DNA of 64,000 nucleotides from Gemmobacter caeni. GTDB taxonomy: Bacteria; Pseudomonadota; Alphaproteobacteria; Rhodobacterales; Rhodobacteraceae. The DNA is taken from positions 54,562-118,561 of the forward strand of contig NZ_QBKP01000015.1 of assembly GCF_003054195.1 (NCBI RefSeq). The letters are read 5' to 3'. The position numbers and the translations under genes were made by a program. Shown piece by piece: positions 17,548-27,785 of the stretch; within the stretch, counting starts at the first letter, position 1, and every line of letters begins with the position of its first letter. Below the pieces are notes generated by a model, which was given only the letters and a program-made list of their open reading frames with translations, was not told the DNA's origin and did not search any database.

Positions 17548-18792
17548 TCAGAACCGCGTCACCGCATAGGGCGCCATGTCCAGATCCGTCTGCCGCCCCG
17601 CTGCAATATCCGCCACGATCCGCGCCGTGATCGGGGCCAAAGTCAAGCCGATATGGCCATGACCATAGGCATGGATCACGTCATTGCCTGCGCGCGAGGG
17701 CGAAATCACCGGCAGGCTGTCCGGCATCGAAGGGCGGAAACCCATCCAGTCCCGGCTGGGCGTGCCCAGATCGGGGAAAATCGCGCGAGCGCCCTCCACC
17801 AGCCGGGCGATGCGATGGGGCGAAGGTGGTGCGGTCAGCCCTCCCAGTTCCACCGTGCCCGCCACCCGCAACCGCCCCGACATCGGACACAGGTAGAAGC
17901 CCCGCGTGGTGGGGCAGCTGGGGCGGGTCAGGCGCGGGCGCTCCATGTCCCATTCCACATGATAGCCACGTTCAGTATCCAGCGGCACCCGGTCGCCGGC
18001 CTGCGCGGCCAGTGCGCGGCTATGGGCTCCGGCGGCGATGACCACCTGTCGCGCATGCAGCCGCAGGCCCGGTCCCTGCACCAGAATCCCGTCGAACTGC
18101 CGTGAAAGGTTTTCGGCCCGGTGGTGCAGATGCGGCACTCCCAGCGCGGTCAGCCGTGCCGCCAGCCGCCGCATCATTTCGCCGGGGTCCGACAGGAAGG
18201 TGGCCTGCGGGAAATAGGCCGCGCCCCCCTCTACCACCGGCAGACCCGGCTCCATGGCGCTGAACGCCTCGGGGCGCAGCAGTTCCACCTCGATCCCCAG
18301 CGTGCGGCGGGCGGTCATGTCGCGCCCGGCAGCGCGGAAAGCGGCGGCAGTTTCGTAAAGGTAAAGGCAACCACGATGCTGCAACAGCGCGCTGCCGCCG
18401 ATCTCGGCCGCGAAATCGCGCCAGCGCGCATTGGCGGACCCCACCAGCGCCGCAATTGCCTGCGCATTGCGCGCGGCTGCGCCGGGCAGGCTCTGCCGGG
18501 CAAAACGCAAAAGCCACGGTGCCAGAGCCGGCAGTGCGGCATGGCGGATCGCCAGTGGCGAATTGCGGTCAAACAGCAGGGCGGGGAGGTTTTTCAGCAC
18601 ATCGGGCGTGCCGACTGGCTGCACGGCGTAATCGGCGATGGTGCCCGCATTGCCGTAAGACGCGCCCATTCCCGGCGCACCGGGATCGACGATGACGACC
18701 TCGCGCCCCTCCTGCACCAGTTGCAGCGCCACGGCCATGCCGATGGAGCCCGCACCCAGGACGGCGATGTCGGTCGTGTGATGTTCGGTCAT
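17548..18792 (-). CDS. FAD-dependent amino-acid/amine oxidoreductase (DadA-like)
   Basis: Starting at MTEHHTTDIAVLGAGSIGMA (ATG 18792) the protein has 414 residues, matching D-amino acid dehydrogenase small-subunit-like DAO enzymes. The FAD motif is LGAGSIGMAVALQL. Later motifs are QVVIAAGAHSRALAAQAGD, PLDTERGYHV and the C-terminal YGHGHIGLTLAPITARI. It would oxidise an amino acid or secondary amine and pass electrons to the respiratory chain. It lies downstream of the alcohol dehydrogenase gene, separated by a strong hairpin, so it may be the last gene of the leftward catabolic cluster. Confidence 0.84.
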   Translation of the reverse strand: MTEHHTTDIAVLGAGSIGMAVALQLVQEGREVVIVDPGAPGMGASYGNAGTIADYAVQPVGTPDVLKNLPALLFDRNSPLAIRHAALPALAPWLLRFARQSLPGAAARNAQAIAALVGSANARWRDFAAEIGGSALLQHRGCLYLYETAAAFRAAGRDMTARRTLGIEVELLRPEAFSAMEPGLPVVEGGAAYFPQATFLSDPGEMMRRLAARLTALGVPHLHHRAENLSRQFDGILVQGPGLRLHARQVVIAAGAHSRALAAQAGDRVPLDTERGYHVEWDMERPRLTRPSCPTTRGFYLCPMSGRLRVAGTVELGGLTAPPSPHRIARLVEGARAIFPDLGTPSRDWMGFRPSMPDSLPVISPSRAGNDVIHAYGHGHIGLTLAPITARIVADIAAGRQTDLDMAPYAVTRF

Positions 18793-18807
18793 CTTCGCCC
18801 CGGAATG

Positions 18808-18833
18808 GCCGGGTGACGTAGGCGTCACCCGGC
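18808..18833 (-). terminator. Strong hairpin after the iron alcohol dehydrogenase gene
   Basis: CCGGGTGACG and CGTCACCCGG form a perfect 10-bp stem with a TAGG loop, extended by an outer G-C pair, 8 bp past the alcohol dehydrogenase stop on the minus strand. No T run follows, so it may be a processing or attenuation hairpin rather than a full intrinsic terminator. Confidence 0.55.
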
Positions 18834-18840
18834 GCTTCCC

Positions 18841-20001
18841 TTACATGCAGGCGGCGTAAAGCGCACGGGTATTCTCGCGCGTCATCTCAATCGGATTGCC
18901 GCCGCAGGACGGGTCTTCCAGCGCCATTTCGGTCAGCTCGTCCAGTCGCGCGGCCTCGACGCCCATCGCGGTCAGGTTGGCCGGGATGTTGAGCTTGGTG
19001 CGCAGGTCCATCACGGCGGCGCGGAAGCCATCGAACCCGCCCGCGATGCCCAGATAGGCGGCGGCTTTCCCGATCCGGTCCTCGATGGCAGCCCGGTTGA
19101 AATCCAGCACCATCGGCATGACGACAGCATTCGTGGTGCCGTGATGGGTGTTGTAGACCGCGCCCACCGGATGCGACAGCGAGTGGATGGCGCCAAGCCC
19201 TTTCTGGAAGGCCACCGCGCCCATGGCGGCCGCGCTCATCATATGGGCACGGGCGTCCAGGTTGCCGGGATTTTTATAGACTTCCACAAGGTTTTCGAAC
19301 ACCAGCCGCATGCCTTCCAGCGCGATGCCCTGCGACATCGGGTGGTAGAACGGGCTGCAATAGGCCTCAAGGCAATGCGCCAGCGCATCCATGCCTGTGC
19401 CTGCGGTGATGAACTTCGGCATCCCCACGGTCAGCGCCGGGTCGCAGATCGTGACCGCCGGCATCAGCTTCGGATGGAAGATGATCTTCTTCTTGTGGGT
19501 CTGCGAATTGGTCAGCACGCCCGCGCGCCCGACCTCGGACCCGGTGCCGGCGGTGGTGGGCACCGCGATGATCGGGGCGATCTTGTCGGCATCGGCGCGG
19601 GTATACCAGTCGTCGATGTCTTCCAGATCCCAGACGCTCAGACCCGCGTCCTGATGCGCCATCAGGGCGATCATCTTGCCCAGATCCAGCGCCGAGCCGC
19701 CGCCAAAGCAGATCACGCCGTCATGGTTGCCTGCGAGATAGGTCTTGATCCCGGCGGCCATGTTGATTTCGTTCGGGTTCGGGTCCACGTCCGAAAACAG
19801 CGCCTCGCCCAGACCGGCGGCCTTGAGAATGCCAAGCGCCTCGGCGGTGATCGGCAGGCTGGCCAGCGCGCGGTCGGTCACCAGCAGGGGCCGGGTGATG
19901 CCCGCTGCCTTGCAATGATCGGCCAGTTCTGAAATCCGGCCCACGCCGAATTTCATGGCCGTCGGGTAAGACCAGTTCCGGTTCGGAACGTTATGGGTCA
20001 T
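18841..20001 (-). CDS. Iron-containing alcohol dehydrogenase
   Basis: Starting at MTHNVPNRNWSYPTAMKFG (ATG 20001, overlapping the aldehyde dehydrogenase stop as ATGA) the protein has 386 residues. The group III alcohol dehydrogenase signatures are present: CFGGGSALDLGKMIA, PTTAGTGSEVGRAGVL, TGMDALAHCLEAYCSP and GAIHSLSHPVGAVYNTHHG with the metal-binding histidines. It oxidises a primary alcohol to an aldehyde with NAD. Coupling to an aldehyde dehydrogenase and a glutamine-synthetase-like ligase suggests the alcohol group sits on a gamma-glutamylated amine (inference). Confidence 0.88.
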   Translation of the reverse strand: MTHNVPNRNWSYPTAMKFGVGRISELADHCKAAGITRPLLVTDRALASLPITAEALGILKAAGLGEALFSDVDPNPNEINMAAGIKTYLAGNHDGVICFGGGSALDLGKMIALMAHQDAGLSVWDLEDIDDWYTRADADKIAPIIAVPTTAGTGSEVGRAGVLTNSQTHKKKIIFHPKLMPAVTICDPALTVGMPKFITAGTGMDALAHCLEAYCSPFYHPMSQGIALEGMRLVFENLVEVYKNPGNLDARAHMMSAAAMGAVAFQKGLGAIHSLSHPVGAVYNTHHGTTNAVVMPMVLDFNRAAIEDRIGKAAAYLGIAGGFDGFRAAVMDLRTKLNIPANLTAMGVEAARLDELTEMALEDPSCGGNPIEMTRENTRALYAACM

Positions 20002-26774: not shown

Positions 26775-26833
26775 TGCTGCGAGTCATCCCTGTTGTTGCC
26801 TTCAGGGTTCACCGCCGACCCGGTTCTGTCAAG

Positions 26834-26870
26834 AATTTTTCTTCTGCGTAATTTCTGTTACAAATTTTTC
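26834..26870. promoter_or_regulatory. Divergent regulatory region with AATTTTTC direct repeats
   Basis: Between the divergent amidohydrolase and RpiR genes there are two AATTTTTC direct repeats (26834-26841 and 26863-26870), spaced 29 bp apart. They bracket a GTAA-N6-TTAC dyad (26848-26861). The strong AT bias and position suggest binding sites for the adjacent RpiR regulator and the paired promoters. Confidence 0.45.
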
Positions 26871-26915
26871 CAAACGGGTGCAGAATGATCCCGAACCGGC
26901 AGCCGGAGGGCCGCG

Positions 26916-27785
26916 ATGGACGAACAGATCACCATTGAGGACCGGATGCGCGCGGCGCTGCCCGATCTGACCCGCGCGGAACGGCAACTGGCCACCCATG
27001 TGCTGAAGAACTACCCTGTGGCCGCGCTGGGCTCGATCACCGCGCTGGCCAAGGCGGCAGAGGTCTCCACGCCTACGGTGGTGCGGCTCTGCCAGAAGCT
27101 GGGCTACAAGGGGTATCCCGACTATCAGTCCGCGCTGCGCGGCGAGGTGGAGGCCATGCTGATGTCGCCTATCGCCAAGCATGATCGCTGGGCGGGCGGT
27201 GTGCCGGATACCCATATCCTCAACCGTTTCGCTGATACGGTGGTCGGCAATCTGCAAGCCACGCTGGGCCAGATTGACCATGCGGAATTTGATGCGGCGG
27301 CCAGCCTGCTGGCCGATGGCGACCGCGCGATCTTTGCCATGGGTGGGCGGATCACCCATGCGCTTGCCGATTACTTTGTCACGCTGATGAAGGTGGTGCG
27401 CCCCGATGTGACGCTGCTTTCCGGCCTGTCGAATACCTGGCCGCCCGCGCTGCTGGACATGAAGCGCGGTGATGTGCTGCTGGTCTTCGACATTCGCCGC
27501 TATGAGAACACCGTGCTGCAACTTGTGGAACTGGCGGTCGAGCAGGGGGCCGAGGTCGTGCTGATCACCGACCGCTGGGTCAGCCCCGCCGCCGCCCATG
27601 CCCGCCACACGCTTGCAGCCCACATCGAGGCGCCAAGCGCATGGGACAGCATGGTGTCCATTACAGTTCTGGTCGAAACCCTGCTCGCCTCGGTGCAGAC
27701 CCTGCGCTGGGACGCAACGGAGGCACGGCTGAAGCGGCTGGAAGGGCTTTACGACCGTTCCCGCTTCTTCCGCCGCCCGAGGTGA
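26916..27785 (+). CDS. MurR/RpiR-family transcriptional regulator
   Basis: A 289-residue protein with an N-terminal HTH_6 domain (LTRAERQLATHVLKNYPVAA, EVSTPTVVRLCQKLGYKGYP) and a C-terminal SIS domain (ADGDRAIFAMGGRITHALAD, KRGDVLLVFDIRRYENTVLQ). SIS domains in this family bind phosphorylated sugars or related metabolites, but several members control amine and purine catabolism. It is divergent from the TRAP/ligase operon and is its likely regulator. GGAGGG precedes the ATG. A bidirectional terminator follows. Confidence 0.88.
   Translation: MDEQITIEDRMRAALPDLTRAERQLATHVLKNYPVAALGSITALAKAAEVSTPTVVRLCQKLGYKGYPDYQSALRGEVEAMLMSPIAKHDRWAGGVPDTHILNRFADTVVGNLQATLGQIDHAEFDAAASLLADGDRAIFAMGGRITHALADYFVTLMKVVRPDVTLLSGLSNTWPPALLDMKRGDVLLVFDIRRYENTVLQLVELAVEQGAEVVLITDRWVSPAAAHARHTLAAHIEAPSAWDSMVSITVLVETLLASVQTLRWDATEARLKRLEGLYDRSRFFRRPR

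What the first reader, a model, noticed from the sequence alone, without database searches (positions are those of the whole stretch)
17548..27785. Possible gamma-glutamylation pathway for an amino alcohol fed by a TRAP transporter
One leftward cluster holds a glutamine-synthetase-family ligase of the PuuA/IpuC kind, an iron alcohol dehydrogenase, an aldehyde dehydrogenase, an N-formylglutamate-amidohydrolase-like enzyme, a DadA-like FAD oxidase and a complete TRAP importer, with a divergent RpiR regulator. Known precedents gamma-glutamylate ethanolamine or alaninol, oxidise the alcohol to aldehyde and acid, then cleave off glutamate to leave an amino acid. The alcohol plus aldehyde dehydrogenase pair fits that logic better than the putrescine route. 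The amidohydrolase as deglutamylase and a TRAP porter as the importer would be new elements.
Basis: partly seen in the sequence, partly recalled or inferred. Interest (0 to 1): 0.72.

Follow-up and report, generated by a model that had tools for sequence, protein, structure and literature searches.

The report
Ethanolamine-eating operon with added oxidase
This bacterial gene cluster likely lets the cell import ethanolamine and turn it, while tagged with glutamate, into glycine by a pathway that is already in print; the one added piece is an oxidase gene that would likely oxidise the glycine further.

Summary
The pathway reading is largely right but already published. The TRAP binding protein is 75% identical to Csal_0678, whose structure (4UAB) holds ethanolamine. 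The gene order equals the published ethanolamine operon of Phaeobacter MED193, whose binding protein binds ethanolamine (Kd 7.9 uM). The N-formylglutamate-amidohydrolase-like enzyme is already named in print as the gamma-glutamylglycine hydrolase. The ligase lacks the ammonia-site residues and has Phe at the flap position, as GlnA4 has. The genome has no EutB. What I did not find in print is the last gene, an amino-acid-oxidase-like flavoprotein. Orthologues occur in 13 of 100 family genomes, all with the ligase; 12 of 13 lie beside catabolic genes, in two genomes without any transporter in the cluster. It keeps the arginine motif of glycine oxidase and DadA, but is neither PuuB nor DadA. The best reading is that it oxidises the product, glycine, to glyoxylate and ammonia (inferred). 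A 37-bp promoter/operator-like element of fixed length precedes the operon in 35 of 63 regions compared. This is a modest new variant of a known pathway.

The parts
26916..27785 (+). RpiR-family regulator, divergent from the operon
   Evidence: Pfam HTH_6 + SIS; found next to the operon in 51 of 59 long loci; same place as MED193_10021 in print
26826..26862 (-). Conserved element TGTAACAGAAA-N15-ATTCTTGACAG (37 bp), a candidate RpiR operator with an embedded -35-like TTGACA at 26832-26827
   Evidence: 35 of 63 RpiR-operon intergenic regions (window plus 62 loci) match with at most 4 substitutions, each match 37 bp long; one hit in the 64-kb window; 0 of 1260 mononucleotide shuffles. The tool's own sigma-70 scan reports no promoter in 17000-28300
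25980..26774 (-). FGase-family amidohydrolase, predicted gamma-glutamylglycine hydrolase
   Evidence: PF05013 143 bits; HutG model only 21 bits against a cut-off of 279; only PDB hit Atu2144 (2odf) 257 bits; role proposed in print
25431..25976 (-). DctQ small TRAP permease
   Evidence: PF04290
24088..25431 (-). DctM large TRAP permease
   Evidence: PF06808
22992..24026 (-). DctP/EtoX-type binding protein, predicted to bind ethanolamine
   Evidence: 574 bits and 75% identity over 318 aa to 4uab/4xf5; next PDB hit 80 bits; acidic residue kept in 82 of 82 aligned sequences
21426..22790 (-). Glutamine-synthetase-family ligase, predicted ethanolamine gamma-glutamylase
   Evidence: PF00120; 5dm3 610 bits and 11zs 577 bits, next hit 194; ammonia-site residues lost; separate from PuuA and GlnA in a tree
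19998..21383 (-). Aldehyde dehydrogenase, predicted gamma-glutamyl-aldehyde to gamma-glutamylglycine
   Evidence: PF00171; none of the 25 NCBIfam families listed reaches its cut-off
18841..20001 (-). Iron alcohol dehydrogenase, predicted gamma-glutamylethanolamide dehydrogenase (ORF 18841-20106, likely start 20001)
   Evidence: PF00465+PF25137; no NCBIfam cut-off reached; EutG model 169 bits against 556
17548..18792 (-). DAO-family flavoprotein, predicted amino acid (glycine) oxidase or dehydrogenase; lineage-specific addition (ORF 17548-18828, likely start 18792)
   Evidence: PF01266; 25 of 59 long loci; 13 of 100 family genomes, beside the catabolic genes in 12 of 13; substrate-Arg motif

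Best explanation
The cluster has the gene content and order of the published TRAP-fed gamma-glutamyl ethanolamine operon plus one extra flavoprotein gene, and it likely imports ethanolamine and converts it to glycine and glutamate, with the flavoprotein predicted to oxidise the glycine further. Predicted steps: EtoX-DctQM imports ethanolamine. The GS-like ligase joins it to glutamate with ATP. The iron alcohol dehydrogenase and the aldehyde dehydrogenase oxidise the hydroxyl to a carboxylate, giving gamma-glutamylglycine without free aminoacetaldehyde. The FGase-type amidohydrolase frees glutamate and glycine. The DAO flavoprotein would turn glycine into glyoxylate and ammonia. The divergent RpiR protein would control the operon through the conserved 37-bp element. 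Shown here: gene content, order, homology, active-site residues, co-conservation. Inferred: every reaction, the ligand, the oxidase substrate and the operator role. The confidence given is for the ethanolamine-to-glycine core; for the glycine-oxidising step alone it is about 0.45.
For: Binding protein: 574 bits, 75% identity to Csal_0678 (4UAB), next PDB hit 80 bits. A paper states that 4UAB holds ethanolamine on Glu220 (passage). The acidic residue at chain index 217 is E in 82 of 82 aligned proteins; that it is the paper's Glu220 is my inference. Gene order is identical to Phaeobacter MED193_10021-10056; five of its proteins are raised on phosphorylethanolamine, EtoX Kd 7.9 uM. Ligase: E. 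coli GlnA D50 -> C, Y179 -> gap, E327 -> F in the window and in all 8 orthologues aligned, while the genome's own GlnA (L007) keeps all three. GlnA4 is described with F331 at the E327 position. Tree of 17 rows: window ligase and 8 orthologues form one clade (100/100) apart from PuuA and GlnA. No EutB in the genome, E. coli control positive. Oxidase: 13 of 13 genomes with it have the ligase; 12 of 13 have it beside catabolic genes. In G086 and G100 the whole module lies on one contig with the oxidase and without any transporter gene. It keeps the G(F/L)RPxxPDxxP arginine of DadA and glycine oxidase; PuuB has lost it. Its best PDB relatives by sequence and by fold are glycine oxidases. On plasmid pAA03 the amidohydrolase-ligase-ALDH-ADH module is followed directly by bhcRABCD, the glyoxylate+glycine assimilation genes.
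Against: No biochemistry on this cluster. Ligand specificity may have drifted at 75% identity. The DAO gene is absent from 47 of 60 ligase-bearing family genomes and is not named in the published operon, so it is not essential to the pathway. One DAO orthologue stands alone (G046/L125). A 59%-identical protein in Rhizobium sp. NLR16a lies beside an amino-acid ABC transporter instead, so its substrate could be another amino acid. DAO and the beta-hydroxyaspartate cycle are not associated (4 of 13 against 26 of 47, p = 0.21), and the own genome has no BhcC hit. The oxidase model is weak (pLDDT 71, active-site region low) and the fold search also ranks L-amino acid deaminase and sarcosine oxidase high. 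9 loci keep the catabolic enzymes without an operon-borne amidohydrolase; 8 of those 9 genomes have a distant paralogue elsewhere, and so does the own genome.
Confidence: 0.87

Rival explanations
1. The same pathway, but the physiological substrate is another small amino alcohol (2-amino-1-propanol/alaninol or similar), so the product would be alanine and the oxidase a D-alanine oxidase.
For: The oxidase scores best against the D-amino acid dehydrogenase model, though under its cut-off (179 against 383). From memory, PDB 4xf5 is the same binding protein with 2-amino-1-propanol; one search shows only that 4xf5 has the same sequence.
Against: The closest studied relatives are ethanolamine binders. 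The genome has a separate true DadA (L104, 719 bits).
Confidence: 0.07
2. The DAO flavoprotein is a neighbour with its own job (general amino acid oxidation) and takes no part in the ethanolamine route. This is a rival for the last step only, not for the core.
For: Missing in 47 of 60 ligase-bearing genomes and not named in the published operon; stand-alone orthologue in L125; amino-acid transporter context in Rhizobium NLR16a; in L016 it lies beyond RpiR on the other strand.
Against: Beside catabolic genes in 12 of 13 genomes, two of them with no transporter in the cluster. In 24 of the 26 loci with it, it comes next after the Fe-ADH match, with -28 to 328 bp between the alignment ends; the two others are L030 (714 bp) and L016.
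Confidence: 0.35
3. A polyamine or alkylamine route (PuuA/PuuB or IpuC type), with the DAO protein as a PuuB-like oxidase of the gamma-glutamylated amine.
For: Ligase and DAO families are shared with Puu; the ligase model GGputSyn hits with 200 bits.
Against: 200 bits is far below that model's cut-off of 650; the ligase is 26% identical to PuuA and separate in the tree; the DAO is 19% identical to PuuB and keeps the arginine that PuuB lacks; the alcohol dehydrogenase has no place in the putrescine route. IpuC itself was not compared.
Confidence: 0.02

Closest known systems
Phaeobacter sp. MED193 ethanolamine operon MED193_10021-10056 (PMC10132767; section 9 and passages read)
   Same: Same genes in the same order: RpiR, amidohydrolase, EtoV, EtoW, EtoX, ethanolamine gamma-glutamylase, aldehyde DH, alcohol DH
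   Different: The text and figure legend name no flavoprotein oxidase in the operon; the window has one after the alcohol dehydrogenase
Chromohalobacter salexigens Csal_0678 system (Vetting et al. 2015; not held, known here through passages of PMC12410723, PMC4646407, PMC10132767, PMC9397018 and PMC6529630)
   Same: Binding protein 75% identical; same four enzyme families PF00120, PF00465, PF00171, PF05013
   Different: Distant host (gammaproteobacterium); I could not see whether an oxidase belongs to its cluster
Streptomyces coelicolor GlnA4 (SCO1613) pathway (PMC6529630, passages read)
   Same: Same predicted chemistry, including the formylglutamate-amidohydrolase-family hydrolase SCO1615; Phe at the GlnA E327 position
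   Different: No TRAP importer is named for it in the passages seen
E. coli Puu pathway
   Same: Glutamylate, oxidise, hydrolyse logic
   Different: Putrescine substrate; oxidase PuuB and hydrolase PuuD instead of alcohol dehydrogenase and FGase
Glycine oxidase ThiO / DadA
   Same: Oxidase fold and substrate arginine motif
   Different: NCBIfam scores below both cut-offs (ThiO 114 of 251, DadA 179 of 383)

Membership tests
TRAP-fed gamma-glutamyl ethanolamine operon (EtoX type) | EtoX-type binding protein orthologous to Csal_0678 | tested here: met
   75% identity, 574 bits against 80 for the next PDB hit
TRAP-fed gamma-glutamyl ethanolamine operon (EtoX type) | PF00120 ligase, PF00171, PF00465 and PF05013 enzymes in one operon | tested here: met
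   published list
TRAP-fed gamma-glutamyl ethanolamine operon (EtoX type) | Gene order and RpiR gene as in MED193 | tested here: met
TRAP-fed gamma-glutamyl ethanolamine operon (EtoX type) | Binding of and growth on ethanolamine | not testable with these tools
   needs bench work
Housekeeping glutamine synthetase | Ammonia-site residues D50, Y179, E327 | tested here: not met
   C, gap, F; the genome has a separate GlnA (L007)
PuuA (gamma-glutamylputrescine synthetase) | NCBIfam NF045547 cut-off of 650 bits | tested here: not met
   200 bits; separate clade
IpuC (isopropylamine) | Closest relative of IpuC in a tree | not tested
   no IpuC sequence was fetched
HutG N-formylglutamate deformylase | NCBIfam TIGR02017 cut-off of 279 bits | tested here: not met
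   21 bits
DadA D-amino acid dehydrogenase | NCBIfam NF001933 cut-off of 383 bits | tested here: not met
   179 bits; E. coli DadA scores 755 and the own L104 719
Glycine oxidase ThiO | NCBIfam TIGR02352 cut-off of 251 bits | tested here: not met
   114 bits
Glycine oxidase-like enzyme (works like) | Substrate-carboxylate arginine in W.G(L/F)RP...D..P (its role is recalled) | tested here: met
PuuB gamma-glutamylputrescine oxidase | Sequence kinship with PuuB | tested here: not met
   19% identity, arginine motif differs
eut ethanolamine ammonia-lyase route | EutB in the genome | tested here: not met
   0 hits, E. coli control rings

The most novel reading that the evidence does not exclude
In a group of Rhodobacteraceae (genera such as Gemmobacter, Rhodobacter and Defluviimonas) the gamma-glutamyl ethanolamine operon has recruited a new clade of glycine oxidase/dehydrogenase, so that ethanolamine is carried past glycine to glyoxylate and free ammonia in one operon: an ethanolamine-to-glyoxylate pathway without Eut enzymes.
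Probability: 0.45. Interest if true: 0.42.

Novelty: new variant of a known kind. Interest (0 to 1): 0.3.

Why it matters
The core pathway is known and common (ligase in 60 of 100 family genomes sampled), so the cluster mostly confirms how widely ethanolamine is used outside the Eut system. If the added oxidase works on glycine, it would say what becomes of that glycine: the ethanolamine nitrogen would leave as ammonia, the carbon would enter glyoxylate metabolism, and the glutamate would be recycled. The element of fixed length gives a direct handle for testing RpiR control.

Tried and rejected

PuuB-like role for the flavoprotein: rejected on identity and the arginine motif. DadA: rejected, because the score is under the cut-off and the genome has a real DadA elsewhere.

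Idea that DAO and the beta-hydroxyaspartate cycle go together or exclude each other as glycine/glyoxylate outlet: not supported (4 of 13 against 26 of 47, p = 0.21). For that count I took the 44 of 50 genomes whose BhcC hit has at least 64% identity and left out six with 52-58% (G043, G063, G065, G081, G100, G106; two of them, G043 and G100, carry the DAO gene). bhc genes beside the cluster were seen only on pAA03 and in L086 (1 of 80 loci).

Idea that the neighbouring 2-hydroxyacid dehydrogenase (28257-29186; Pfam) is a glyoxylate reductase of the pathway: not adopted, because it lies next to rodA/mrdA-like genes (read from the translations, not searched) and is also seen where the ligase is missing (L057).

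Idea that loci without the amidohydrolase use the oxidase in its place: chemically implausible, and 8 of 9 such genomes have a distant FGase paralogue elsewhere; the own genome has one too, so this is not specific.

Transporter-only loci (L031, L055, L057, L066, L067, L080, L085): no match to EutA, EutB, EutC or EutH in any locus searched except the E. coli one (EutG matches were filtered out), and nothing informative by eye. EutB by single protein gave no hit; the family search with a control confirmed it.

Paper searches with no added value. "Not found in print" for the oxidase rests on searches and on passages read. The key 2015 paper is not held, so it may mention such a gene.

Recalled, from no call: that 5dm3 is Csal_0679, the ligand of 4xf5, the role of the glycine-oxidase arginine, the NTA reading of the pAA03 neighbours.
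Full report
WHAT IS THERE. On the minus strand, in order of transcription: FGase-type amidohydrolase, DctQ, DctM, DctP, glutamine-synthetase-family ligase, aldehyde dehydrogenase, iron alcohol dehydrogenase, DAO flavoprotein. A divergent RpiR regulator lies on the plus strand. The largest gap inside the operon is about 200 bp (DctP to ligase). The alcohol dehydrogenase most likely starts at 20001 and the flavoprotein at 18792 (read from the frames).

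SUBSTRATE. The binding protein matches the PDB sequence of 4uab/4xf5 with 574 bits; the next PDB entry has 80 bits. Identity is 75% over 318 residues. PMC12410723 (passages) says that 4UAB is Csal_0678 of Chromohalobacter salexigens with ethanolamine held by Glu220. PMC4646407 (passage) says that it lacks the carboxylate-binding arginine of typical TRAP proteins. In the alignment of the window protein, 4uab and 80 relatives, the acidic residue at chain index 217 is E in 82 of 82. That this is the paper's Glu220 is my inference from the numbering offset.

THE PATHWAY IS PUBLISHED. PMC10132767 (section 9 read; passages) gives the operon MED193_10021-10056 of Phaeobacter: RpiR, gamma-glutamylglycine amidohydrolase, EtoV, EtoW, EtoX, ethanolamine gamma-glutamylase, aldehyde DH, alcohol DH. 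That is the same order as here. Five of its proteins rise on phosphorylethanolamine, and EtoX binds ethanolamine with Kd 7.9 uM. PMC6529630 (passages) predicts the formylglutamate-amidohydrolase family as the last step in Streptomyces. PMC9397018 (passages and table) lists PF00120, PF00465, PF00171 and PF05013 for C. salexigens. The source paper of 2015 is not held.

THE LIGASE. Its best PDB hits are 5dm3 (610 bits) and 11zs (577), then 194 bits and lower. Against E. coli GlnA, D50 is C, Y179 falls in a gap and E327 is F in the window protein and in all 8 orthologues aligned, while the glutamate- and metal-site residues checked are kept. The genome's own GlnA (L007) keeps D50, Y179 and E327. 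GlnA4 is described with F331 at the E327 position. In a tree of 17 rows, the window ligase and its 8 orthologues form one clade (100/100), apart from PuuA and GlnA. IpuC was not available. The genome has no EutB; the E. coli control is positive.

CO-CONSERVATION. Of these, 59 have at least 4.3 kb upstream and 6.5 kb downstream; the other 21 were set aside. Of the 59, 52 have ligase+ALDH+ADH, 51 RpiR, 44 the amidohydrolase, 25 the DAO gene; 6 have no ligase, and 1 has the ligase without the full set. In 100 family genomes, the binding protein is in 57, the ligase in 60, both in 54, and side by side (under 4 kb) in 44. These counts are not corrected for descent.

THE EXTRA GENE. Orthologues of the flavoprotein (350 bits or more, 60-71% identity apart from the window's own; two partial) occur in 13 of 100 family genomes, own genome included; two further hits at 40% identity were left out. 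All 13 have the ligase (Fisher p = 0.001, not corrected for descent). In 9 of 13 the oxidase lies within 8 kb of the ligase on one contig. In 3 more (G030, G031, G039) it follows ALDH/ADH genes on short contigs. In 1 (G046) it is alone. In G086 and G100 the amidohydrolase, ligase, ALDH, ADH and oxidase genes lie together with RpiR and without any transporter gene; G086 has no EtoX hit at the cut-off used (E 1e-100) and G100 has a 60%-identical one elsewhere. In G030, G031 and G039 the contigs are too broken to tell where the transporter lies. So, on two clear cases, the oxidase goes with the catabolic arm rather than the importer.

By sequence and weakly by fold its nearest solved relatives are glycine oxidases (79 bits; Foldseek rank 1, followed by L-amino acid deaminase and sarcosine oxidase; model pLDDT 71 with a poor active-site region). 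It falls below the NCBIfam cut-offs of both DadA and ThiO. The genome has a true DadA elsewhere (L104, 719 bits). It keeps the GFRPSMPDSLP motif whose arginine binds the substrate carboxylate in glycine oxidase (role recalled); PuuB lacks it. An amino acid substrate is thus likely, and glycine is the amino acid that this operon would make besides glutamate. Against this, a 59% relative in Rhizobium sp. NLR16a lies beside an amino-acid ABC transporter, and the oxidase is absent from 47 of 60 ligase-bearing genomes.

GLYOXYLATE LINK. On plasmid pAA03 of Aminobacter aminovorans, RpiR-amidohydrolase-ligase-ALDH-ADH is followed directly by bhcRABCD, the genes that assimilate glyoxylate with glycine. 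L086 has bhc genes next to its RpiR gene too. Across the family sample, however, BhcC (hits of at least 64% identity) is not associated with the oxidase (4 of 13 against 26 of 47 ligase-bearing genomes, p = 0.21), and the own genome has no BhcC hit while 50 of 100 genomes in the same search do. I report this as a lead only.

CONTROL REGION. Between RpiR and the operon lies the 37-bp element TGTAACAGAAA...ATTCTTGACAG at 26826-26862. I compared the window and the 62 loci in which RpiR and the first operon gene match at a distance of 40-320 bp (amidohydrolase) or 40-400 bp (DctQ). It is found in 35 of 63 with at most 4 substitutions, each time 37 bp long although the middle part varies. It occurs once in the window and in 0 of 1260 mononucleotide shuffles. 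It holds a TTGACA. The tool's sigma-70 scan finds no promoter in the region. The 28 without it are mostly loci with lower binding-protein identity, but L010 (88%) lacks it too. I take it for a promoter with an RpiR site; this is untested.

VERDICT. What remains is a lineage-specific oxidase that likely extends a known pathway.

Noticed in passing
L130 (Aminobacter aminovorans pAA03), 6175-17347: The transporter-less amidohydrolase-ligase-ALDH-ADH module sits directly before bhcRABCD on a plasmid typed as conjugative, beside an LLM/flavin reductase pair and a DAO/2Fe-2S/FAD set (perhaps NTA-type degradation; recalled).
   Followed up: partly
L040, L044, L046, L049, L050, L053, L062, L063, L071: Operons that keep ligase, ALDH and ADH but have no amidohydrolase in the operon; 8 of 9 genomes have a distant FGase paralogue elsewhere.
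   Followed up: partly
L031, L055, L057, L067, L085 and others: EtoX-type TRAP importers without any of the catabolic genes nearby; what they feed is open.
   Followed up: partly
window 28257-29186: D-2-hydroxyacid dehydrogenase (Pfam 2-Hacid_dh_C) between a rodA-like gene and the operon, conserved near RpiR in several relatives.
   Followed up: partly
window 13646-17483: GMC oxidoreductase, OsmC-like protein, GntR/FCD regulator and sugar-nucleotide epimerase downstream of the cluster; the epimerase follows the flavoprotein in several relatives.
   Followed up: no
G000 contig C11:111330-114758 (L003, L004): Two further glutamine-synthetase-family paralogues side by side in the same genome; not the housekeeping GlnA by residues.
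   Followed up: no
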